A stretch of DNA of 64,000 bases, from positions 620,001 through 684,000 of the forward strand of contig CP040678.1 in the NCBI GenBank assembly GCA_005954745.1, in the 5' to 3' direction. Of this stretch, positions 13,554-27,143 are shown in pieces (position 1 is the first letter of the stretch; each line of letters starts with the position of its first letter). The notes under the pieces were generated by a model that saw only the letters and a list, made by a program, of their open reading frames with translations, ran no database searches and was not told where the DNA came from. A program made the translations under genes and the position numbers. This DNA is from Halostella pelagica (GTDB taxonomy: Archaea; Halobacteriota; Halobacteria; Halobacteriales; Natronoarchaeaceae).

Positions 13554-15182
13554 TCAGTCCTCGAAATCGGTGGCGGGCGTATCGGCCGCTCCGAACGCCC
13601 TCAATGCGTCGAGATCGCAGTTCTCGGCGAGCAGATCCGCGGCGTCTTCGTACGGCGTCGGCATCTCGCCCCTCCCGGGTCGCGACGCGTCGAACAGCGT
13701 CTCCAGAAACGCTTCCCGTGCCGCCTCGTTCTCGAACAGCCCGTGGAGATAGGTCCCGAGTACGTCACCGCGGGCCGCACCGTGACCGTCGAACGGCCGC
13801 GCTACGTCATCCACGGGGGTCGTTTCGCCCATGTGGATCTCGTAGCCCGACACCTCGGCGTCGGCGTCCGCCAGCGGCCCCGCACCGTCCAGATGGCGGG
13901 TCGTTCGCGTCACACGCTTCTCGGGCGAGAACTCTGTTTCGACGGGGAGGAGACCGAACCCGTCCACGGTGTCTCGCTCGTCCGTCGACTCCACTCCCGC
14001 GTTCGTGATCCGCTCCCCGAGCATCTGATAGCCTCCACAGAGGCCCACAATCGGGCCGTCGAAGGCGGCCAACTCATCGCCGAACCCTGCCTCGCGGAGC
14101 GTGAGCAGGTCGTCGACGGTGTTTTTCGTTCCGGGCAGGACGACCGCGTCCGCGTGCCTACTGGCACGCTCCGAACTGGCGGCAGTCATAGCCCCGTCGG
14201 CGTCGTCGAGCGACGCCTCGGGGGGAATGAACGCCACGCGGACACCGGGTTCGCGCGCCAGCGGTTCGAAATCGGTGAAGTTAGAGATGCGGGGCGTCCG
14301 GGGTACGGCGACGGTGACCGCACGGTCTTCGTCCACCTCGTCGTCAGCGCCGCGAACATCGCGCTCGCCTACGGCGGGCAGCGACACGCTGTCCTCTTCG
14401 GGGAGCCCCGGATCGTCGTACGGGAGGACGCCGAGAACGGGGACGCCGGTTCGCTCCTCGAACGCCTCGACGCCGGGAGCGAGCAGTGACTCGTCCCCGC
14501 GGAATTTCGTGATGACGCAGCCGACGACCCGTTCGCGGACGTCGTCGGGCATCAGTTCGAGCGTCCCGACGAGGCTGGCGAAGACGCCGCCGCGCTCGAT
14601 ATCGGCGACCAGAACCACGTCGGCGTCGCCGAACCGCGCCGCCTCGACGTTCGCGAGGTCGCGGTCGTGGAGGTTGATCTCCGCGATGGAGCCGGCACCC
14701 TCCGCGACGACCACCTCGTGGTCGCGGGCGAGTCGGCAGTGAGATTCGACCGCCGCGGCGCGGGCCTGGTCCCAGTACTCCTCGTAGTACGATTCGGCCT
14801 CGTAGTGGCCGACCGCTTCGCCCTGGATCACGAGCTGGCTCTCGCCCTCGCCGCGGGGTTTCAGCAGGACCGGATTGTGGTCGGTGGTCGCCGGCACCTC
14901 GGCGGCACGGGCCTGTACGTACTGTGAGACGCCGATCTCGCCGAACGCGCCGGATTCGCCGTCGCCCGCTTTCGGCACCGCCTGGGCGTTGTTGCTCATG
15001 TTTTGCGCTTTGAACGGAGCGACGTCGACGCCCTGTCGCGCCAGCAGGCGACAGAGTCCCGCCGCGACGGTGCTCTTGCCGACGTGACTGGCGGTGCCCG
15101 CGACGAGGACTGTGTGTGCGTCGGGCGTCTCGCCGTCCGGGGACGGTGTCTCGCCGTCCCTCTCCTCTGTATCGTCAGCCAT
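13554..15182 (-). CDS. cbiP: Cobyric acid synthase
   Basis: A 542-residue glutamine-dependent amidotransferase that amidates adenosylcobyrinate a,c-diamide at four positions to form adenosylcobyric acid. An N-terminal ATP-binding domain shows a P-loop-like [10 protein letters not shown] near residue 29-38 and [10 protein letters not shown]. The C-terminal class I glutaminase domain has the nucleophile segment [10 protein letters not shown] and a His-containing HMGETTP. A roughly 20-residue acidic leader precedes the conserved part. Length is somewhat above the bacterial norm of about 500. Its start codon shares one base with the stop of the upstream cobO. Confidence 0.93.
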
Positions 15183-15823: not shown

Positions 15824-16002
15824 GGTGTGTCGTGTCGGTTCGTCGCGTCGTGTCGCGTCGCACCGACTCCTAGTTCGTATCTCCGCGCCGGGGATAAACA
15901 ACGTTCCGGGTATGCGACGACTCGTTGCGGAGCGGGGCGATGGGCCTCCGTCTCGCGTCTCGGGACCAGCGTTTACCTGACTCCGCGTCGGAGTACGGAT
16001 CG

Positions 16003-16449
16003 ATGGAGGGGACTGGAGCGTATGACGGCGTGCTGATATACGACGGGGAGTGTCCGCTCTGCTCGGCTGCGGCCACGGCATTGCGCCGCCTCCGGACCGC
16101 CGGTTCCGTCTCCTGGTACGACGATGCGGCGCAGGCGTTTCTCGCGGCGCAGTTCGGGGAGACGCCGTTCGCCCTGGTTTTCGTCGACCGCGAGACGGAG
16201 GCGGTCTACGCCGGCCGCGCCGCGGCGAGCGAACTCTGCGACCGGGCGGGGCTACCGGTACTTGTCCGGGACATCGTCGGCGAGAACTACGAAGCGATCG
16301 CGGACGGTATCCGTTCGGTCGCCGGACTCGACGGGTCGCCGGACCCCTATCACGGCGTCTATCCGCTGGCAGACGACGCCGCCGAGCGGTTCGACGCCCT
16401 CGCCGACGCCGCGGACGGGACCGTCCACGTGCCGCGGACGGAGCAGTAG
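16003..16449 (+). CDS. DCC-family thiol-disulfide oxidoreductase-like protein (DUF393)
   Basis: A 148-residue small protein with the DxxCxxC signature YDGECPLCS near residues 13-21, which defines the DCC/DUF393 family of predicted thiol-disulfide oxidoreductases. A later conserved pattern VYAGRAAASEL also fits. The ATG at 16003 places the motif close to the N-terminus as in relatives; upstream in-frame starts add unsupported sequence. The physiological partner is not known. It sits alone between cobO (divergent) and the Dps-like ferritin gene. Confidence 0.82.
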   Translation: MEGTGAYDGVLIYDGECPLCSAAATALRRLRTAGSVSWYDDAAQAFLAAQFGETPFALVFVDRETEAVYAGRAAASELCDRAGLPVLVRDIVGENYEAIADGIRSVAGLDGSPDPYHGVYPLADDAAERFDALADAADGTVHVPRTEQ

Positions 16450-16544
16450 AGCGCGCGTTGCTTTTCTAAACCCGAACTACTGTTTCACGGTTGGTAAAAT
16501 ATCGTTAAGTATCACGGTATCGTATTTGCTTTGGGGGATATCTA

Positions 16545-17210
16545 ATGTCAGACGAAGACCCAGAACACGCCTCGGGGAGCATCTCCCCGGGCGATACGAG
16601 CCAGCGAGTGGGGATGGAAGTACTGCGCGAGCGAGGACTGGAACCGGAGGAGTTGCGCGAGAAACTGATAGACGCCATCGGCGCGGAGTTCACCACGTAC
16701 TACTACTACACGAACCTCCGGATGCATCTCGCGGGCAACGAGGACTACAAGGAGATCACCGAAGACGCCCGTCTCGAGGACCGCGCACACTTCGAGTTGG
16801 TCGCCCCGCGCGTCTACGAACTGGGCGGTCACCTGCCCAACGACATCCGCGACTTCGCCGACCGGGCGTCCTGCCCGGACGCGGAACTGCCGGTGCCCTA
16901 CGACGACGAGGGGGGGCAGTTGCAAATCGAAGATCTCACCGCAGAGGACGTGCTCGAAGTGCTTCTAGAGGCGGAGCGCTGCGCCATCCGCACCTGGTCG
17001 GAGGTCTGTGATATGACTCATGGAGTCGACCCGCGGACGTACGACATGGCCCAGCGCATCCTGCAAGAGGAGATCGAACACGAGGCCTGGTTCGTGGAAC
17101 TCCTGAGCATGGAGCGCGACGGCGAGATCAACCCCGCCGGCCATTTCGTCCGCGGCGAACCCGGCGACGCGCCGTACTCGACGAACCGCCGGTTCAACGA
17201 CAGCGCCTGA
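16545..17210 (+). CDS. Dps-like ferritin-superfamily protein (DPSL type)
   Basis: A 221-residue four-helix ferritin-like protein for iron storage and protection from peroxide. Candidate di-iron ligands are E48, E79, H82, E144, E176 and H179. Cys 110, 146 and 155 are present, and C146/C155 lie next to ligand E144 as in Dps-like (thioferritin) proteins of archaea, which separates it from classical DpsA of haloarchaea. The conserved helix segment around SEVCDMTHG and TYDMAQ supports this. The ATG follows a purine-rich GGGGGATATCTA. A palindromic repeat begins right after the stop. Confidence 0.83.
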
Positions 17211-17285
17211 GAGGGACTGTTGTACGTCAGTTCGGTCTCTCGCCGACACGTGGTCGGCGATACCGGCACACAGCCAGGACCGTCC
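17211..17285 (-). repeat. Palindromic intergenic repeat, copy 2 (inverted)
   Basis: This copy lies in the opposite orientation, starting one base after the stop codon of the Dps-like gene. It shares GGGACTGTTGTACGTCAGTT, CGCCGACACGTGGTCGGCGA and CCGGCACACAG with copies at 938-1012 and 40634-40710. The outer arm (CCAGGACC side) is more diverged. The inner stem is a perfect GCCGAC/GTCGGC pair around ACGTG. Confidence 0.72.
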
Positions 17286-17350
17286 TTTCGAGTGGCCTGC
17301 GATCCGACAGGAGCCGCCATCCTCTTTTTCCTCTGTCGATAAACCCTCAC

Positions 17351-17713
17351 GTGAGTAGTCACACCGTCGAGTTCGTCGTCCCGGACGAGTGCGATGTCGA
17401 ACCGTCGGGCGAGACGGTCGCAATGGAGGTCCACGAGGACCAGTACCTGCTTGCGGCCGCCAGGAGCAACGGCCTGTGGCTCCCGGCGGACTGCCAGATG
17501 GGGTGGTGTACGGTCTGTGCCGCTCGCCTCCTCGAAGGCGAGGTCGACCAATCCGACGCTCGTCGCTACTACGACGAGGACCGAGAGGCCGACCTCGTGC
17601 TGACCTGTGTCGCCAGGCCGCGCTCGGACCTCCGCCTGCGCGTCTGCCAGGAAGAGAGTATGCTAAACCACCGTTCCGACTTCGGCTTGCCGCCCGGGCG
17701 ATCGAAGCGGTAG
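17351..17713 (+). CDS. 2Fe-2S plant-type ferredoxin
   Basis: A 120-residue ferredoxin with the cluster ligands C48, C53, C56 and C86 in the CxxxxCxxC...C arrangement (DCQMGWCTVC, then VLTCVARPRSDL). Unlike the long haloarchaeal Fdx (about 129 residues with an acidic insertion near the N-terminus) this is a shorter paralogue, similar to the one at 31753-32088. The GTG at 17351 is the only suitable start. It would carry electrons to an unidentified partner; its position between the ferritin and cbiA does not settle which. A Cys 98 (RVCQEE) is extra. Confidence 0.85.
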   Translation: MSSHTVEFVVPDECDVEPSGETVAMEVHEDQYLLAAARSNGLWLPADCQMGWCTVCAARLLEGEVDQSDARRYYDEDREADLVLTCVARPRSDLRLRVCQEESMLNHRSDFGLPPGRSKR

Positions 17714-17758: not shown

Positions 17759-19072
17759 TCACAACCGTTTGATGAACGCGTCGAACGCCCCGCTTTCGGG
17801 GTGGATGTGCGCGTACGTCCCGAGCGTACTGTACTCCGTGAGTCCGTCGCGCTCGTCGTCGATGCCGTCGCCGCGCACCACGTCGAACGCGAAACGGGCG
17901 TCCCGGTCCACGTCGGCACTGGAGTAGTGGAACTCGTGTCCCCGCAGCGTCTCGCCCGCGTCGGCAGTGAGCGCATCGTCCCGCGCTTCCAGTTCGACGT
18001 GGTCGAGCGCCTGATAGCGGTCGTGCATCGACACGTCCGCGGGGAGGATACCGGCCATGTCGTGGCTGTCGGCGTCGTCGCCGGCGGGTTCGAGCGAGCG
18101 CGTGAGCGCCATCAGGCCCCCGCACTCGCCGAGAATCGGTAGGCCGTCGGCGGCGCGGTCGGCCAGCGTCGAAAGCGCGGGGGACGCGGCCAGGTCCGCT
18201 GTGTGGAGTTCGGGATACCCGCCCGGCAGGTACACACCGTCGCATTCGGGCAGGTCGTCGCCAGCCGTCGGTGCGAACGTGACCACGTCGGCACGCTCCC
18301 GGAGGCGCTCTATCGTCGCCGGGTAGTAGAAGCAGAAGGCGGCGTCCTGTGCGACGGCGACGGTCGGGTCGCGGTTCGCGTGCGTCACCGCCACGTCGTC
18401 GGTCGGCGGCCGCGCCGGCGCGGAAGACAGGTCGACCAGTCGCTCCGTCCGAACGTGTTCCGCCGCCGCGTCGAGCGCGTCCTCGGGGAGCGACGCCTCC
18501 CCACCCATATGCAGGCCGAGGTGGCGGTCCGGTATTTCGAGGTCGTCGTTCGGCGGGATCCGCCCGAGGTACTCCAGGTCCTCCGGAAGCGCGTCGCGGA
18601 TCCCCTGTTCGTGGCGGCCGCCGTGTGCGCGCTGGACGAGAACGCCGGCGACGTCGATCTCCCGGCCGATCCGGTCGGCGTACTCCCGGAAGCCGAGCGC
18701 CGTCGCGGCGACGCTTTCCATCCCCGCTTTCGCGTCCGCGACGAGGACCACGGGTAATGAAAGCGCCTCGGCGACCATCGCGGTGCTGGAGCCGTCGCCG
18801 TCGTACAGCCCCATCACGCCCTCGACGACCGTCAGGTCGCCCTCGCCGCGGTAGTAGTTCCGGTGCAGGCCGTCCTCGCCTTCCAGCCACAGGTCGAGCG
18901 TCCGCGACGGCCGGTCCGCGATCGCTTCGTGGTGGCTCGGGTCGATGAAATCAGGCCCGGCCTTCGCGGGCTGGACCTCGTACCCCTCGCGCCGGAGCGC
19001 GCGGATCACAGTCAGCGTCGCAACGGTCTTGCCGACGCCGGAGCTCGTACCGCCGAGAACGACGCCGTTCAC
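17759..19072 (-). CDS. cbiA: Cobyrinate a,c-diamide synthase
   Basis: A 437-residue glutamine amidotransferase amidating the a and c side chains of cobyrinate. The N-terminal P-loop GTSSGVGKT is at 8-16, followed by AGPDFIDPSHH, a family hallmark, and VEGVMGLYDG. The C-terminal glutaminase domain shows LGECGGLMALTRS with the nucleophile Cys. It is the last gene of the eight-gene cobalamin chain and overlaps cbiZ by 4 bp. It is separated from cbiP and cobO, which lie upstream of another unit on the same strand. Confidence 0.93.
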   Translation of the reverse strand: MNGVVLGGTSSGVGKTVATLTVIRALRREGYEVQPAKAGPDFIDPSHHEAIADRPSRTLDLWLEGEDGLHRNYYRGEGDLTVVEGVMGLYDGDGSSTAMVAEALSLPVVLVADAKAGMESVAATALGFREYADRIGREIDVAGVLVQRAHGGRHEQGIRDALPEDLEYLGRIPPNDDLEIPDRHLGLHMGGEASLPEDALDAAAEHVRTERLVDLSSAPARPPTDDVAVTHANRDPTVAVAQDAAFCFYYPATIERLRERADVVTFAPTAGDDLPECDGVYLPGGYPELHTADLAASPALSTLADRAADGLPILGECGGLMALTRSLEPAGDDADSHDMAGILPADVSMHDRYQALDHVELEARDDALTADAGETLRGHEFHYSSADVDRDARFAFDVVRGDGIDDERDGLTEYSTLGTYAHIHPESGAFDAFIKRL

Positions 19073-19800
19073 GGCTCGAACACCTCCACGTCCGTCTCGG
19101 CGACGGGAGCGACGCCGTATCTGGCTCCGTCGACGGTGTCGGGGACCTGCTCGTCCGAGTACCGCGACGCCAGACTCGCCCGCACGGCGTCTCTGACGCA
19201 GGCCCGGGCCGACGCGCCGACCGCCGTGGCGCTCCCCGAGAACCGCGCGCGGTCGCCGTCCGGGTCACAGGCGGCGACGACGGCGTCGCTCGTCGTCCCG
19301 GGGAACCCAGTCTCACGGAGCAGAACCGTCGCCTTCGCCTCCGCGGCGACCGCGACGAGATTCGCCAACGCTCCGGACCCGAGCGAGCGTTCGGTCCCGA
19401 CGAAGACGTTGACGGTCCCGGGACGCGGCCTCTCGTCGGAGGTGTCGGCGTTGCTCCCGTCCGCATCGGACGGGTCGAGCGGCGCTGGGTTCGACACCCC
19501 GACCGTCGCGACGGCCGAGACTGACCCGTGTTCGGCGACGCGGGCGTGGCGCTGGGAGACGCCGGTCAGCAGTGCGGGACCGCTCACGTCGTCCGCGTCG
19601 CTCGCTTCCGGACCGAATCCGGCGTCCCGTCGCCGTTCGGCGACGTACGCGGTCAGGTCGGTCCACTCCCACTCCTCCGGTACGGTCACGTTGTACGCGG
19701 CGTTCGCGACCGTTTCGCCGCCGTCGAACCCCGTGCTGAGCCAGCGGGTTCCCGGCCGGCGGAGACGGGTAACGCCGTCTCGAACGGCCGTTTCAAACAT
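19069..19800 (-). CDS. cbiZ: Adenosylcobinamide amidohydrolase
   Basis: A 243-residue protein matching CbiZ, which cleaves the aminopropanol arm of adenosylcobinamide (or pseudocobalamin) to adenosylcobyric acid so that salvaged corrinoids can re-enter the pathway. Supporting segments are RWLSTGFDGGE, ANAAYNVTVP, ALLTGVSQRH, and a VNVFVGTERSL run before AVAAEAKATVL. The ATG at 19800 (MFETAV) overlaps cobD by 8 bp; an open frame extends further upstream but inside cobD. CbiZ is characteristic of archaea and a few bacteria that salvage incomplete corrinoids. Confidence 0.88.
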   Translation of the reverse strand: MFETAVRDGVTRLRRPGTRWLSTGFDGGETVANAAYNVTVPEEWEWTDLTAYVAERRRDAGFGPEASDADDVSGPALLTGVSQRHARVAEHGSVSAVATVGVSNPAPLDPSDADGSNADTSDERPRPGTVNVFVGTERSLGSGALANLVAVAAEAKATVLLRETGFPGTTSDAVVAACDPDGDRARFSGSATAVGASARACVRDAVRASLASRYSDEQVPDTVDGARYGVAPVAETDVEVFEP

Positions 19801-20803
19801 CGGCCATCGCCTCCAGCAGTCGGTCGTTCTCCGCGGACGTTCGCACGGCGACGCGGACGTGCGAATCGAGGCCGCGAAACGTCGTCGCGTCCCGGACCGC
19901 GATCCCCCGTTCCCGCAACCGGGCCACCAGCCCGTCCACGTCGCAGTCTCCCACGTCGACGAGCAGAAACGGCGCGTCGGACGGGCGGACGTCGTACTCG
20001 TCGTCCAGCGTCTTGCGCATCCTCTCGCGCTCCCGGTCGACGCGGCGACGGGTGGTTTCGGCGAACGCGGACTGCCGCAGACAGTGCGCGCCAACCGCCG
20101 CTGCCGGTGCTCCGAGCGTCCACGCGCGTCGGGCGTTTTCGAGACGGCCGAGTTCGTCTCCCGTCGCGGCGGCGAACCCGGCACGGAGACCGGGCAGTCC
20201 GTACAGTTTCGTCAGCGACCGCGCGACGACGACGCCGTCCGTTCCGGCCATCGACGGGCGGTCGGTGAAACCGAGAAACGCCTCGTCGACGAGCAGCGTC
20301 GTTCCCGCAGCGTGGCACCGCTCGGCGAACGCCCGCAACTCGTCGTGGTCGTACGCGTCCCCCGTCGGGTTGTTCGGGTTACAGACGATAGCGAGCGCGC
20401 GGCCCGCGGGGTCGGCGTCGAGGACCCCGTCCTGATCGACGAACTCGGGGGTCGCGCCCTGCAGGCGTACCTCGCGTGCGTACTCGCCGAAACTCGGCGC
20501 GGGGACGAGAACGGAGTCCCCCGCGTCGACGGTCGTCCCGATGGCCAACCGGATCGCCTCTAAACCGCCCGCGGTGGGTACGATACGCTCCAGGTCGCAG
20601 TCGAGCGAGTCGGCGGCGGCGCGGCGGAACTCGCCGTACCCGTCGTCCGGATACCGCCGTGCCGTCTCGAACGCCGACTCGTAGACGGAGACGGTGTCCG
20701 ACGGGCACTCGGGGTTGACGTTCGCGCTGAAGTCGATCAGGGTTTCGTCGTCGCTGCCGCCGTGGGGGACCCGTCCGGTCGCGGCGGCGGCCTCGGGGTT
20801 CAT
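19793..20803 (-). CDS. cobD: L-threonine-O-3-phosphate decarboxylase (PLP aminotransferase fold)
   Basis: A 336-residue fold-type I PLP enzyme of the CobD/HisC type, supplying (R)-1-aminopropan-2-ol phosphate for the nucleotide loop. The N-terminal [18 protein letters not shown] is typical of CobD; CNPNNPTG is at 141-148 and the PLP lysine is K199 in [12 protein letters not shown]. HisC is the alternative by fold, but context within the cobalamin chain and the DFSANVNP motif support CobD. The start overlaps the cobT stop by 4 bp. Confidence 0.9.
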
Positions 20804-21810
20804 GGGGACCCGGACCCGTTTCTCTCACCGAGCAGTCCGTCGTAGACGGTTGCGATCCGGTCTCTGACCCGTTCCATCGAAACGCCGGTGCGGTCCGCGA
20901 GCGAGAGCGCACCACCCATCCCGACGCCTTCCTTCGCCTCGCCGGCGACGTAGCGCTTCATCGCGACGTGGTCGCTCTCGTCGAACCCGGGGTCTGTCAC
21001 GGTGAGGTCGAGGTCGAACGCGTCCGCCGCGCCGTCGAGGTCTACGCCCTCGTCCTCGGCGACGAAACTCGTCGTGGCGAGCGCCAGCGGCGCGTCGACG
21101 TCCGCGTGTCGGACCAGCGCCGCGGCGGCGAGCATCTGCGTCCCGCCGGCGAGCGTCACGGGCGTGTCCGAGCGAAGTGCGCCGACGGTCAGACCGGCGA
21201 CGGTCGCCAGCACGGGGTCGCCGGCGTACCGCGCGGCGTACGCCGGTTCGCCGGACAGTTCGCCCGGTGTGAGGCCGTTTACAGCAAGCGCCTCGTCGAC
21301 CACGTCGCGCTTCCGTTCGATCGGGTTCTCCGGGAGCGACGAGGAGACGCCGACCTCCTCGCCGAGCGCGGTGAGGACGCCGAGCGCCGTCGTCGTCCCG
21401 CCGGGGACTGTCTCACCGATCACGAGTTCGTCGTCCGGGAGCGCCCGGCCGAACTGTCGGGCGGCGGCGAAGGCCCCGGGCGCGGTGGGGACCGGGTCCT
21501 CCTCGCGGATGTCGTCGCCCGGGCGTGCGCCGACGGTGACGGTCGGCGCTGCGGTGTTTTTCGCGAGGCCGCCGTCCACGACGGTCAGGTCGAACCCGAC
21601 GAGGTCGCGGACCGCCCGGGTGACGACGGCGGGCGTCGGACAACCCGTCGGGCTCACTGGCACCGACGGCGCGCGGACGGTGTCGCCGTACGCGAGAACC
21701 TCCGCGTCGGCACTCGGGGTGTGGACCATCAGGTCGGCGTCGGCACCAGCGGCGCTGATACCCTCGATGGCGGCGGTGCGGGTCGTCCCCGCTGCGAGGA
21801 CGAACCTCAC
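20800..21810 (-). CDS. cobT: Archaeal CobT-type phosphoribosyltransferase (UPF0284)
   Basis: A 336-residue protein of the archaeal CobT group, predicted to activate the lower-ligand base (dimethylbenzimidazole or similar) to its ribotide. Visible family features include [19 protein letters not shown] at the N-terminus, [25 protein letters not shown] and the [11 protein letters not shown] segment. The GTG at 21810 overlaps the cobY stop by 4 bp; longer in-frame sequence upstream lies within cobY. Bacterial CobT sequences differ strongly, so the substrate is inferred from context and family. Confidence 0.87.
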
Positions 21811-22388
21811 AGGAGCGCCTCCGCGATCTGTGCGTCTCTCTGCCGGTTCACGTTCACTGCGAGTCGTGCGTCGTATGTCGTGTACATCGTATCTGAATCC
21901 TCCGTCTCGGCGACGACGTTGACGCCAGTCGGCGCGAGGCCGTCGAACTCGGTGTCGCAACTGACGCCGAGTAAGTCCTTGAGCGCGGCGGGAACGCAGA
22001 CCGTCATCGACCCGTCGTCGCCGGAGTCACGGGCCGCGCGGTACGCCCGGAGGGTCGCGTCGACCGCATCACCGCCGAGCAGCGGCAGGTCCGAGGCGAC
22101 GGTCAGGACGGGCGGGTCGACCGCATCGTCGGCGAGCGCCGCGTTCAGGTCGGCGACGTACCCGTCGCCCGCCGTCTCGATGGCGGGGAGTCCGAGGTCC
22201 TCGGTCGCGTGCGCGGCGGTCTCGGGTGCCTGCGGCGAGGTGACGGCGTAGGTCGTCTCGACCGCGCTATCCGCCAGCGCGTTGGCGACGCGGTCGATCA
22301 TCGGCCGCTCGCCGACCGGAAACAGCGGTTTCTCCGCGTCCGAATCGAGTCGCGTCCCCTCCCCGCCGCAGATCAGGAGAGCGTCCAC
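21807..22388 (-). CDS. cobY: Adenosylcobinamide-phosphate guanylyltransferase
   Basis: A 193-residue nucleotidyltransferase of the archaeal CobY type, which replaces bacterial CobU in attaching GMP to adenosylcobinamide phosphate. The nucleotide-binding loop CGGEGTRL is at 8-15, followed by [27 protein letters not shown], and GVNVVAE. It lacks the kinase function of CobU, in keeping with the archaeal route where CbiB makes the phosphate directly. It overlaps cobS upstream by 16 bp and cobT downstream by 4 bp. Confidence 0.92.
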
Positions 22389-23209
22389 GCGACCACCCCC
22401 GCGTGCAGACCGGCGACTCGGCCGAGTTCGTTCACAGCGCCGAAGACGTCACCGCTGACGCCGCCGAGCGCACCGCGGGCCCGGCGCATCACCGCGACGG
22501 CAACGGCGAGCGCCCCGGCGAGTGCCGCTGCCGCGGCCGGCGACGGCCACGACAGTGCGACCGCCGGCGCGGCGGCGAGCGCGGGACGTGCGAACGACTC
22601 CGGCGTCGCGGGAGCCGTCAGCGCTGACCCGAGTCCCTCGTGCGTCGCCGTGCCGGCGCAGGCGAGCAGCGCCATCCCCGCCTTCGCGCCCACCTCGCTC
22701 GCGACGACGACGGCGACCGCCGTCGACGGCGATGAGCCGGCGAGGTCAGCCAGCGCGAGGCCGCCGAGCGCGAGTCCCGCGAGGACGACCGCGACCGCGA
22801 GGACCGCCCCCACGCCGACGGTCGTGTCTTTCATCGCCTCTCGGCGGCGGTCCGCGTCGCCGTGGACGACCGCCGCGTCGCCCAGGTCAGCGACGCCGTC
22901 GAGGTGATTGATCCCCGTGACGGCGTACACGGCGACGACGTACGCGAACGCGACGGTCGGGGCCAGCGGGGCGACCGCCGACGGGACGGCGACGAGCGGA
23001 ACCGTCGAGGCCAGTGTGACGATCGCGAAGGGAGCGGCGACGAGCGCCCCGACGAGATAGCCCGCGAGGGGAAACGTCGCCGGGGCGGTCTTGAACGCCT
23101 CCCAGGCCCGTTCGTCGCGCCCGACGGGCACGCGCGTCAGGAACCCGACCGCGCCGCGTAGCGCCGCGACGCCGTCGCCGACCCGGGAGACGGGTCCGCT
23201 TAGAGCCAC
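22373..23209 (-). CDS. cobS: Adenosylcobinamide-GDP ribazoletransferase (cobalamin synthase)
   Basis: A 278-residue integral membrane protein joining adenosylcobinamide-GDP and alpha-ribazole (phosphate). It shows GFLTRVPVG early, the metal/substrate segment GINHLDGVADLGDA with Asp residues near 100-112, and about seven hydrophobic segments, as is normal for CobS. The GTG at 23209 overlaps the end of cbiB by 10 bp; longer upstream frames are inside cbiB. Most of the protein is Ala/Val-rich, which produces strong shadow reading frames on other strands. Confidence 0.9.
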   Translation of the reverse strand: MALSGPVSRVGDGVAALRGAVGFLTRVPVGRDERAWEAFKTAPATFPLAGYLVGALVAAPFAIVTLASTVPLVAVPSAVAPLAPTVAFAYVVAVYAVTGINHLDGVADLGDAAVVHGDADRRREAMKDTTVGVGAVLAVAVVLAGLALGGLALADLAGSSPSTAVAVVVASEVGAKAGMALLACAGTATHEGLGSALTAPATPESFARPALAAAPAVALSWPSPAAAAALAGALAVAVAVMRRARGALGGVSGDVFGAVNELGRVAGLHAGVVAWTLS

Positions 23210-24168
23210 GCCACCACCCCCGCGACGGCGTAGGAGAGCACGCCCGCCCGCGAGACGATGCCGACGCCGCGGTGCGCCTCGTCGACGGACGGGAGCCGCC
23301 CCATCGCGTTCAGTTCGTACGCGCCGGGTTTCTCCAGGCGGACGTGGAGCGCGCCGGCGAGCGTCGCCATCGGCCAGCCGGCGTTCGGCGACTGCGGCGT
23401 CGCCGCCCACCGCCGCGCCGAACGCAGCGCATCGGGGTCGACCGCCGCGACGGCGACGGCGACCGCGGCGATCCGGGCGGGGAGCCACATCACCACGTCG
23501 TCCAGGCGCGCGCTTGCCCAGCCGACGGGTTTCGAGCGGTAGCCGAGCATCGAATCGAGCGTGTTGACCGCTTTGACCCACGCGGCGGCGGCGGCCGCGA
23601 GCGGCAGCGACACCGTCGCAACTGCGGCGAACGCGAAAAGCGGGGCGACCAGACCGTCCGCGAGGTTCTCCGCAGCGCTCTCGACGGCCGCGCTCCGCAG
23701 ATGTTCCGGAGAGAGGTCGCTCGGGTCGCGGCCGGCGAGCGCTGGGAGTCGGTCGCGAGCGTCGGCCGGATCCGCCGCAGTCGTGTCTACGACGCCCCGC
23801 GCTTCTTCGAGGAGCATCCGGAGACTGGTCGACGCGAAAAGCGCCAGCCCGGCACCCACAGCGCCGGCGAACGGGTGGACTCGAACCGCGGCGAACACGA
23901 CCACGCCGACAGCCCCAGCGGCGATCGCGGGGAGCACCACCGCGGCGACGCTCCCAACCAGCCGCGGCCGCGACCACTCGCGGTCGAACAGCGCGACGAG
24001 TCGGCCGAACCACACCACCGGATGCAGACTCTCCGGCGGTTCGGCGACCGCACGGTCGAGGGCGAACGCGAGCGCCACGGTGAACGGTCCGGTCAGCGTC
24101 AGAGCGAGCGGACCGGTTAGCGACGGACCTCCCGGATCAGCCTGAAGCAGTTGGACGCTCGCCGTCAC
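23200..24168 (-). CDS. cbiB: Adenosylcobinamide-phosphate synthase
   Basis: A 322-residue membrane protein that joins adenosylcobyric acid to aminopropanol phosphate. The family's PESLHPVVWFGR near the N-terminus and a GWPMATLAGALHVRLEKPGAYELN segment near the C-terminus are clear, with several hydrophobic segments between. The GTG at 24168 forms a GTGA overlap with the HAD phosphatase gene; an in-frame ATG at 24186 lies inside that gene and is less likely. The product would feed CobY. Confidence 0.9.
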   Translation of the reverse strand: MTASVQLLQADPGGPSLTGPLALTLTGPFTVALAFALDRAVAEPPESLHPVVWFGRLVALFDREWSRPRLVGSVAAVVLPAIAAGAVGVVVFAAVRVHPFAGAVGAGLALFASTSLRMLLEEARGVVDTTAADPADARDRLPALAGRDPSDLSPEHLRSAAVESAAENLADGLVAPLFAFAAVATVSLPLAAAAAAWVKAVNTLDSMLGYRSKPVGWASARLDDVVMWLPARIAAVAVAVAAVDPDALRSARRWAATPQSPNAGWPMATLAGALHVRLEKPGAYELNAMGRLPSVDEAHRGVGIVSRAGVLSYAVAGVVAWL

Positions 24169-24791
24169 ACGTTCTCCTCCAGCCATACCGGGAACTCGCT
24201 CAGCGTGACGTCCTCGACGGAGACGAACGTCCCGCCGCAGTTCTCGACCCCGGCGTCGGTTCTGGGGTCATCTCCTACGTGGATCAGGTCGGTGAGGTCG
24301 ACGCAGGCGCGCCGCCCGACGGCCTCGAACGCCTTCGGGTGCGGCTTTCGCCAGCCACAACCGACGCTCGTCACCACAGCGTCGAACCGGTCGGGGTCTA
24401 TCTCCGACCGAACCAGCGCGCGCCGGGCGAGTTCCGGCACGGAGCAGTTCGAGCAGAGAGCGACCGGTCCGCGGTCGGCGGCCGCCGCGACGGCGTCGCG
24501 GGCACCGTTTAGCGTGGTCACGTCCGGGTCGAAGGCCGACACGACGGCCCGGCGAGCGGCGTTGCCCACGGCGGCGTCGACGCCGCGACTCGACAGGGCC
24601 GCGGCGACGTGTGCGGGCAAGGGCACCTCCGCGCCGTCGGGCGCGTCGACATGGCGCTCCCGGTAGGCCTCGTCCCAGTCTTCCGGGACGGGCACGTCCC
24701 TGGCGGCGAGTTCCCTGGCGACGGCTGACGCGGGGTCGGCGGGCCTGTCAGCGTCGACGAGCGTGCCGAAGAGGTCGAACGATACTGCCAC
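24165..24791 (-). CDS. HAD-family phosphatase at head of cobalamin operon
   Basis: A 208-residue haloacid dehalogenase-type hydrolase. Motif I is SFDLFGTLVD (nucleophile and acid Asp), motif II LCSNCS, motif III the Lys in GWRKPHPKAF, motif IV HVGDDPRTD. The helical cap is small. The GTG at 24791 puts motif I next to the start as usual. The gene overlaps cbiB by 4 bp and is the first of eight overlapping cobalamin genes, in which no cobC or cobZ alpha-ribazole phosphatase is seen. A role as that phosphatase is my inference from context; HAD enzymes are otherwise promiscuous. Expression starts at a short AT-poor upstream region. Confidence 0.82.
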   Translation of the reverse strand: MAVSFDLFGTLVDADRPADPASAVARELAARDVPVPEDWDEAYRERHVDAPDGAEVPLPAHVAAALSSRGVDAAVGNAARRAVVSAFDPDVTTLNGARDAVAAAADRGPVALCSNCSVPELARRALVRSEIDPDRFDAVVTSVGCGWRKPHPKAFEAVGRRACVDLTDLIHVGDDPRTDAGVENCGGTFVSVEDVTLSEFPVWLEENV

Positions 24792-26288: not shown

Positions 26289-27143
26289 CTACGAGCGAAC
26301 GATATCGAACTCGTGTTCGCCCCGTTCGTTCGCCTCAGCCAGTGCTTCGACCGCCGCGTCGAAGGTCTCGCGGTCGTCGACCGAGATCCGCTCGGGCATC
26401 GCGTCGGGGTCGTCGACCAGCGAGAACAGTCCGAGCGTCGCCTTCCCGAGCGCGCGGGCCACGCGGCTCTCCGACGCCTCGACGCGCTCCGAGGGCGTTG
26501 TCCAGTCGAAGACCAGATCGGCGCGAGCGTCGTCGACGTAGACGCGTCGGAGGTTGTCCAGCCCCGGTGACTGCTCTGGGGCACGGAACTCGTAGCAGCT
26601 GATGGCGTACTCGTCCCATTCGACCAGCGGGTCTTCGGGGACGACGACCGACGGCGTCCCGACCAGCGCCTCGTTCGCGCGTGCCGGCGCGTCCGGGTCG
26701 ACGTCGGCGTTCAGGTACTGCTGGGAGTGATGCGGAACCGACCGATAGAGACACTCGCCGTTTCGGACGACGAAGAGTTCGCCGACCTCGTACACCCGCC
26801 AATGGTTCTCGCCCGCAGCGCCCCAGTTGTCGGGGCTCTCCGACTCCTCGACCGTCAGCGCGTCGACCAGTGCGTCCGCCCCGTCCGGGAGATCGACTCG
26901 GAACTCAGGGTCACCGCTCCCGTTGCGGACCTCGTCGTCCGGGACGCGCTCGAACCGTTCGTCGAGCAGCCGCTGGGTGTGCGGACTCAGGTTGCCGACT
27001 GACGTTCTTCCCCGGAGTGAGAGACGGGCGGCGTCGCCACGCTCCGCGACTGCCCCTGCCACTCGGTTTAGCGCTTCGACGCGTTGCTCGTCGGTGCCCC
27101 GACACAACACTCTGTGCGTGACTGACCCACTCCCCGGATCCAT
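26289..27143 (-). CDS. Hypothetical protein, no recognised domain
   Basis: A 284-residue soluble acidic protein that I do not recognise. The N-terminal 60 residues look like an alpha/beta unit (VLCRGTDEQRVEALNRVAGAVAERG), the middle has a Trp/His/Tyr-rich segment (HWRVYEVGELFVV, PHHSQQYLN), and the end carries charged helices. No catalytic pattern, signal peptide or membrane segment is evident. Codon use and composition match its neighbours, so it is likely a genuine haloarchaeal gene. It is separated by 190 bp from the M24 gene downstream on the same strand. Confidence 0.65.
   Translation of the reverse strand: MDPGSGSVTHRVLCRGTDEQRVEALNRVAGAVAERGDAARLSLRGRTSVGNLSPHTQRLLDERFERVPDDEVRNGSGDPEFRVDLPDGADALVDALTVEESESPDNWGAAGENHWRVYEVGELFVVRNGECLYRSVPHHSQQYLNADVDPDAPARANEALVGTPSVVVPEDPLVEWDEYAISCYEFRAPEQSPGLDNLRRVYVDDARADLVFDWTTPSERVEASESRVARALGKATLGLFSLVDDPDAMPERISVDDRETFDAAVEALAEANERGEHEFDIVRS

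What the first reader, a model, noticed from the sequence alone, without database searches (positions are those of the whole stretch)
24165..24791. HAD phosphatase heading the cobalamin operon: candidate alpha-ribazole phosphatase
Eight genes (HAD, cbiB, cobS, cobY, cobT, cobD, cbiZ, cbiA) overlap by 4-16 bp each. The nucleotide-loop steps are all represented except a phosphatase (CobC or archaeal CobZ) for alpha-ribazole phosphate or adenosylcobalamin phosphate. A HAD enzyme with all four motifs occupies first place. A non-orthologous replacement is a natural hypothesis; HAD enzymes with other substrates are common.
Basis: inference. Interest (0 to 1): 0.57.

Follow-up and report, generated by a model that had tools for sequence, protein, structure and literature searches.

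The report
HAD enzyme of haloarchaeal B12 operon
The first gene of this salt-loving archaeon's vitamin B12 operon encodes a HAD-family enzyme that was proposed in print years ago as the missing last phosphatase of the pathway; genome comparisons mostly support that, with real exceptions and an unusual active site, and no test of it was found.

Summary
A 208-aa HAD protein (24165-24791, minus) heads eight genes (HAD-cbiB-cobS-cobY-cobT-cobD-cbiZ-cbiA) overlapping by 4-16 bp. The genome has no CobC-type (PF00300) or CobZ-type (PF04608) phosphatase. The hypothesis is already in print: PMC8305020 lists HVO_0586 = VNG_1577C (HSL01294) as predicted EC 3.1.3.73, after Rodionov 2003; Haloferax species show the same gene order. 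New here: (1) 90 of 107 haloarchaeal copies sit directly before cbiB; intact copies occur in 100 of 108 cobalamin-operon genomes and 2 of 8 without one (not corrected for kinship). (2) 'All four motifs' is too strong: motif I is DxF, not the DxD of HAD phosphatases, in all 106 copies that cover it. (3) Four copies beside an M24 peptidase, without cbiB, lost the nucleophile, form one clade, and still evolve under constraint. (4) Eight operon genomes lack an intact copy, six with no CobC-like protein either, so it is not universally needed. The phosphatase role is likely but unproven.

The parts
24165..24791 (-). HAD-superfamily hydrolase (208 aa), proposed alpha-ribazole-5'-P / adenosylcobalamin-5'-P phosphatase; ortholog group of HVO_0586 / VNG_1577C by gene order
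23200..24168 (-). cbiB, adenosylcobinamide-phosphate synthase
   Evidence: PF03186 E=2e-73, TIGR00380 over cut-off; GTG start at 24168 overlaps the HAD stop by 4 bp
22373..23209 (-). cobS, adenosylcobinamide-GDP ribazoletransferase
   Evidence: PF02654, TIGR00317 over cut-off; start
21807..22388 (-). cobY, adenosylcobinamide-phosphate guanylyltransferase
   Evidence: PF12804; TIGR00454 and NF045495 best but under cut-off
20800..21810 (-). cobT, archaeal nicotinate-mononucleotide-dependent phosphoribosyltransferase
   Evidence: TIGR00303 over cut-off; start
19793..20803 (-). cobD, threonine-phosphate decarboxylase
   Evidence: TIGR01140 over cut-off
19069..19800 (-). cbiZ, adenosylcobinamide amidohydrolase
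   Evidence: PF01955 E=1e-37
17759..19072 (-). cbiA, cobyrinate a,c-diamide synthase
   Evidence: PF07685 + PF01656
15182..15823 (-). cobO/cobA, corrinoid adenosyltransferase
   Evidence: PF02572 E=3e-46
13554..15182 (-). cbiP, cobyric acid synthase
   Evidence: PF07685 + PF01656
24902..26098 (-). M24 metallopeptidase (prolidase-like) directly upstream of the HAD gene; recurrent second neighbour of HAD copies
   Evidence: PF00557 E=3e-38; upstream of 20 of 107 HAD copies (flanks of 1.5-2.5 kb for most, so a lower bound)

Best explanation
The HAD protein is a Mg-dependent hydrolase working through an aspartyl-phosphate that serves nucleotide-loop assembly: it removes the 5'-phosphate from adenosylcobalamin-5'-phosphate made by CobS, or from alpha-ribazole-5'-phosphate made by CobT, in place of CobC/CobZ. 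Asp6 would attack the phosphate, Ser114 and Lys149 hold it, Asp174/Asp179 bind Mg. Because the usual general acid-base Asp at +2 is Phe8, proton transfer must come from another residue or from water. Shown: superfamily and predicted fold, conserved residues, operon membership, absence of CobC/CobZ, bias of intact copies to cobalamin-operon genomes. Inferred: substrate and catalytic activity.
For: No PF00300 or PF04608 in the genome; PF04608 over cut-off in only 1 of 116 haloarchaeal genomes. HAD is directly before cbiB in 90 of 107 copies. Nucleophile present in 102 of 107 copies; it is lost only in four copies beside M24 without cbiB, and one further copy is broken in a genome without cbiB or CobS. 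Intact copy in 100 of 108 operon genomes against 2 of 8 without operon, Fisher p=2.5e-5, uncorrected for kinship. In genus g7, where the gene is often unlinked, it is kept in 50 of 52 genomes, the two misses being 79% and 84% complete. In the lineage whose old copy died, two genomes carry a second, intact copy of different ancestry right before cbiB.
Against: Motif I is DxF in all 106 copies that cover it, unlike the 11 recognisable DxD HADs among the 22 PF00702 hits of the same genome; nearest solved relatives include haloacid dehalogenases and PH0459, which also lacks the +2 Asp. Eight of 108 operon genomes (G001, G002, G007, G026, G044, G050, G072, G088) have no intact copy; six of these have no PF00300 protein either. 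G073 and G089 keep an intact divergent copy without cbiB or CobS, beside a family III CoA-transferase. Co-loss of neighbours can be one deletion. A HAD substrate cannot be read from sequence.
Confidence: 0.5

Rival explanations
1. A HAD phosphatase of another or broad substrate range (house-cleaning, or a step linked to the M24 peptidase) that happens to sit at the head of the cobalamin operon.
For: M24 peptidase is directly upstream in the window and beside 20 of 107 copies; two genomes without cbiB and CobS keep an intact divergent copy; six operon genomes do without it and without CobC-like proteins.
Against: Linkage to cbiB (90 of 107) is far more common than the M24 linkage seen; among the eight non-operon genomes only two, both of genus g23, keep an intact copy. 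Its retention in genus g7 even when unlinked suits either reading.
Confidence: 0.27
2. Not a phosphatase: a dehalogenase-like hydrolase of another bond, or a mainly structural partner of CbiB/CobS, consistent with the missing +2 Asp and with nucleophile-less copies that stay under selection.
For: Invariant Phe at +2; nearest structures include L-2-haloacid dehalogenases, cis-epoxysuccinate hydrolases and PH0459; dead copies have dN/dS 0.18-0.26, like intact ones at 0.12-0.41.
Against: An acidic Mg-type motif IV is kept in the copies beside cbiB; structure neighbours also include named phosphatases such as 4ygq and AlnB 4ex6; all cbiB-adjacent copies keep the nucleophile.
Confidence: 0.15
3. 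The phosphatase of the pathway in haloarchaea is the CobC-like histidine phosphatase, and HAD does something else.
For: 41 of 108 operon genomes have a PF00300 protein; six tested match TIGR03162 (CobC) best, at 109-118 bits against a cut-off of 162.9; two HAD-less operon genomes, G044 and G072, have one.
Against: The window genome has none; 67 of 108 operon genomes have none; no PF00300 place lies closer than 142 kb to cbiB among the 27 of 52 places on the same contig.
Confidence: 0.05

Closest known systems
HVO_0586 / VNG_1577C (HSL01294), predicted EC 3.1.3.73 (PMC8305020 Table 3, citing Rodionov 2003)
   Same: Same gene order HAD-cbiB-cobS-cobY-cobT-cobD-cbiZ in Haloferax loci; same proposed function
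   Different: Nothing known to differ; the H. volcanii and H. salinarum sequences themselves were not compared here
CobC (Salmonella, histidine phosphatase, PF00300/TIGR03162)
   Same: Proposed reaction
   Different: Unrelated family; absent from this genome
CobZ (Methanosarcina; its assignment to PF04608 is recalled)
   Same: Proposed reaction; archaeal non-orthologous replacement
   Different: Unrelated family; PF04608 absent here and over cut-off in only 1 of 116 haloarchaea
PH0459 (1x42), HDHD3 (3k1z), L-2-haloacid dehalogenases (1qq5, 2no4)
   Same: Capped HAD core; PH0459 also lacks the +2 Asp (FDFVGT)
   Different: About 20% identity; substrates unknown or unrelated

Membership tests
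HAD superfamily | HAD core with nucleophile Asp, motif II Ser/Thr, motif III Lys, acidic motif IV | tested here: met
   PF00702 over cut-off; D6, S114, K149, D174, D179; model pLDDT 97 with HAD structures at Z 17-19
Canonical HAD phosphatase (DxD) | Second Asp of motif I (+2) as general acid-base | tested here: not met
   Phe at +2 in 106 of 106 copies that cover it; role of the second Asp from PMC8069645 and PMC12715507
CobC alpha-ribazole phosphatase | Histidine phosphatase family PF00300 / TIGR03162 | tested here: not met
   The protein matches only HAD families; no PF00300 in the genome
CobZ (PgpA-like, PF04608) | PF04608 domain | tested here: not met
   No PF04608 match for the protein or in the genome
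HVO_0586 / HSL01294 ortholog group | HAD gene directly before cbiB at the head of the haloarchaeal cobalamin operon | tested here: met
   Haloferax loci L092, L095, L145, L151 show the gene content and order of HVO_0586-0593; window copy 62-66% identical to Haloferax copies. HVO_0586 itself was not compared.
EC 3.1.3.73 enzyme | Hydrolysis of alpha-ribazole-5'-P or AdoCbl-5'-P | not testable with these tools
   Needs an assay or a mutant

The most novel reading that the evidence does not exclude
A HAD family found here only in haloarchaea completes coenzyme B12 with a phosphatase site that lacks the usual acid-base Asp, and has budded off a nucleophile-less pseudoenzyme that is kept under selection beside an M24 peptidase for a purpose independent of cobalamin synthesis.
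Probability: 0.22. Interest if true: 0.5.

Novelty: already known. Interest (0 to 1): 0.32.

Why it matters
The last phosphatase of haloarchaeal B12 synthesis is a step that PMC8305020 lists as prediction only. If confirmed, it would be a third unrelated protein family for this reaction, after CobC and CobZ, and a HAD phosphatase without DxD. The four nucleophile-less copies give a natural contrast, and Haloferax volcanii offers a tractable test.

Tried and rejected
A replacement phosphatase at the same place in HAD-less operons: the gene before cbiB in G001, G002, G007, G050 and G088 is a BtuF-like binding protein (PF01497), not a phosphatase. A long 'CobY' ORF in cobT-first operons looked like a fusion, but the extension overlaps the cobS region and I judged it a start-codon artefact from coordinates. 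Genus g7 genomes without a cbiB match were first read as lacking the pathway; four of the five have CbiP, so they were not counted as lacking it. HAD outside Halobacteria: in a phylum sample 19 of 148 genomes matched at E<=1e-15, and all 19 are handles of the haloarchaeal set. No Rfam family reached its threshold in the window. Literature: only one paper names HVO_0586 or VNG1577C; searches gave no experimental test in their listings.

Full report
What is there. The window lies in a 3.94 Mb genome, 99.8% complete, haloarchaeal by its relatives. On the minus strand a 208-aa HAD protein (24165-24791, GTG start) is followed by cbiB, cobS, cobY, cobT, cobD, cbiZ and cbiA, overlapping by 4, 10, 16, 4, 4, 8 and 4 bp; families were checked. 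Upstream, 110 bp away, lies an M24 metallopeptidase.

The pathway gap. PF00300 (CobC) and PF04608 (CobZ) have no match in the genome. Across 116 haloarchaeal genomes PF04608 is over its cut-off in 1 and PF00300 is found in 42. Six of these PF00300 proteins were tested; all match TIGR03162 (CobC) best, but at 109-118 bits, below the cut-off of 162.9. None lies near cbiB: the smallest distance is 142 kb among the 27 of 52 places on the same contig as cbiB.

Already in print. PMC8305020 (passages seen) lists HVO_0586 as a prediction for EC 3.1.3.73 after Rodionov 2003 (not seen; cited there for HSL01294 = VNG_1577C), and says that CobC has no homolog in haloarchaea. Haloferax loci found here have the order HAD-cbiB-cobS-cobY-cobT-cobD-cbiZ-cobD, which matches HVO_0586-0593. 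I did not compare the H. volcanii sequence itself. A search for the locus tags found only this paper.

Distribution. With the window protein as query, 110 of 116 genomes match at E<=1e-5; a score gap separates 105 copies in 103 genomes (155 bits or more) from weaker paralogs (74 bits or less). I added the weak cbiB-adjacent copy of G021 and the broken copy of G042: 107 copies in all. Of these, 90 sit directly before cbiB. cbiB is found in 109 of 116 genomes; I dropped G020, whose match is 43.6 bits and which has no CobS, leaving 108 operon genomes and 8 others (G010, G020, G042, G047, G073, G078, G089, G108), all without CobS (CobS was tested in 19 genomes only). Intact copies: 100 of 108 against 2 of 8, p=2.5e-5. 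This is not corrected for kinship, and linked genes can be lost in one deletion. In genus g7, where the HAD gene is often unlinked, 50 of 52 genomes keep it; 51 of the 52 have cbiB or CbiP, so g7 cannot separate a cobalamin role from a housekeeping one.

Exceptions. Eight operon genomes have no intact HAD: G001, G002, G007, G026, G044, G050, G072, G088; only G044 and G072 have a PF00300 protein. In five of them a BtuF-like gene stands before cbiB. G073 and G089 have no cbiB or CobS but keep an intact copy, 48-51% identical, beside a family III CoA-transferase.

Active site. D6, S114, K149, D174 and D179 are conserved, but the second Asp of motif I is Phe in all 106 copies that cover it. Two papers describe that Asp as the general acid-base of HAD phosphatases (PMC8069645, PMC12715507; passages). 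In the same genome 11 of 22 PF00702 hits show DxD, 5 show DKT, this one shows DLF, one DNV, and four gave no clear motif. Lack of the +2 Asp is not disqualifying: I recall that E. coli YihX has Gly there (no call).

Dead copies. In G026, G062, G087 and G108 a copy beside the M24 gene, not beside cbiB, has D6 changed to Ala, S114 changed and D174 changed. They form one clade (100/97) among the copies of family f5. G062 and G087 also carry an intact copy before cbiB that branches elsewhere (with f2 copies, 88/76), as if the operon had been regained with its own HAD. The dead copies evolve at dN/dS 0.18-0.26 (four pairs), like intact ones at 0.12-0.41 (six pairs) (simple counting, dS up to about 1). 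So catalysis was lost where the operon link was lost, yet the protein was kept: this argues both for a cobalamin-linked catalytic role and for some other, non-catalytic use. G026, with a cobalamin operon and only a dead copy, speaks against strict need.

Verdict. The evidence here strengthens the link to cobalamin synthesis, weakens 'all four motifs', and shows that the gene is neither strictly required for, nor strictly confined to, cobalamin-operon genomes.

Noticed in passing
L074:6493-7128, L075:6704-7351, L080:6742-7407, L221 (G062): Nucleophile-less HAD copies beside an M24 peptidase, one clade, still under purifying selection.
   Followed up: partly
L031-L060: 42 of 116 haloarchaeal genomes have PF00300 proteins; six tested match CobC (TIGR03162) best though below cut-off, at odds with the statement in PMC8305020 that CobC has no homolog in haloarchaea.
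   Followed up: partly
L066, L068, L077, L079, L081: A second operon layout with cobT (mostly cobT-cbiA) before cbiB and no HAD gene occurs in several lineages, including part of genus g7, where the HAD gene sits elsewhere.
   Followed up: partly
L071 (G042), L072 (G073), L073 (G089): Genus g23 genomes lack cbiB and CobS but have a divergent HAD copy, beside a family III CoA-transferase in G073 and G089 and an erythromycin-esterase-like gene in G042 and G089; the HAD copy is broken in G042.
   Followed up: partly
15925-17713 (+): Three plus-strand ORFs lie between cbiA and cobO, splitting the cobalamin genes; their families were not searched.
   Followed up: no
26289-27143 (-): 284-aa ORF upstream of the M24 gene with no Pfam match.
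   Followed up: no
L061 (G091): The only PF04608 (CobZ/PgpA) match over cut-off in 116 haloarchaeal genomes, in a genome that also has the HAD gene; origin unknown.
   Followed up: no
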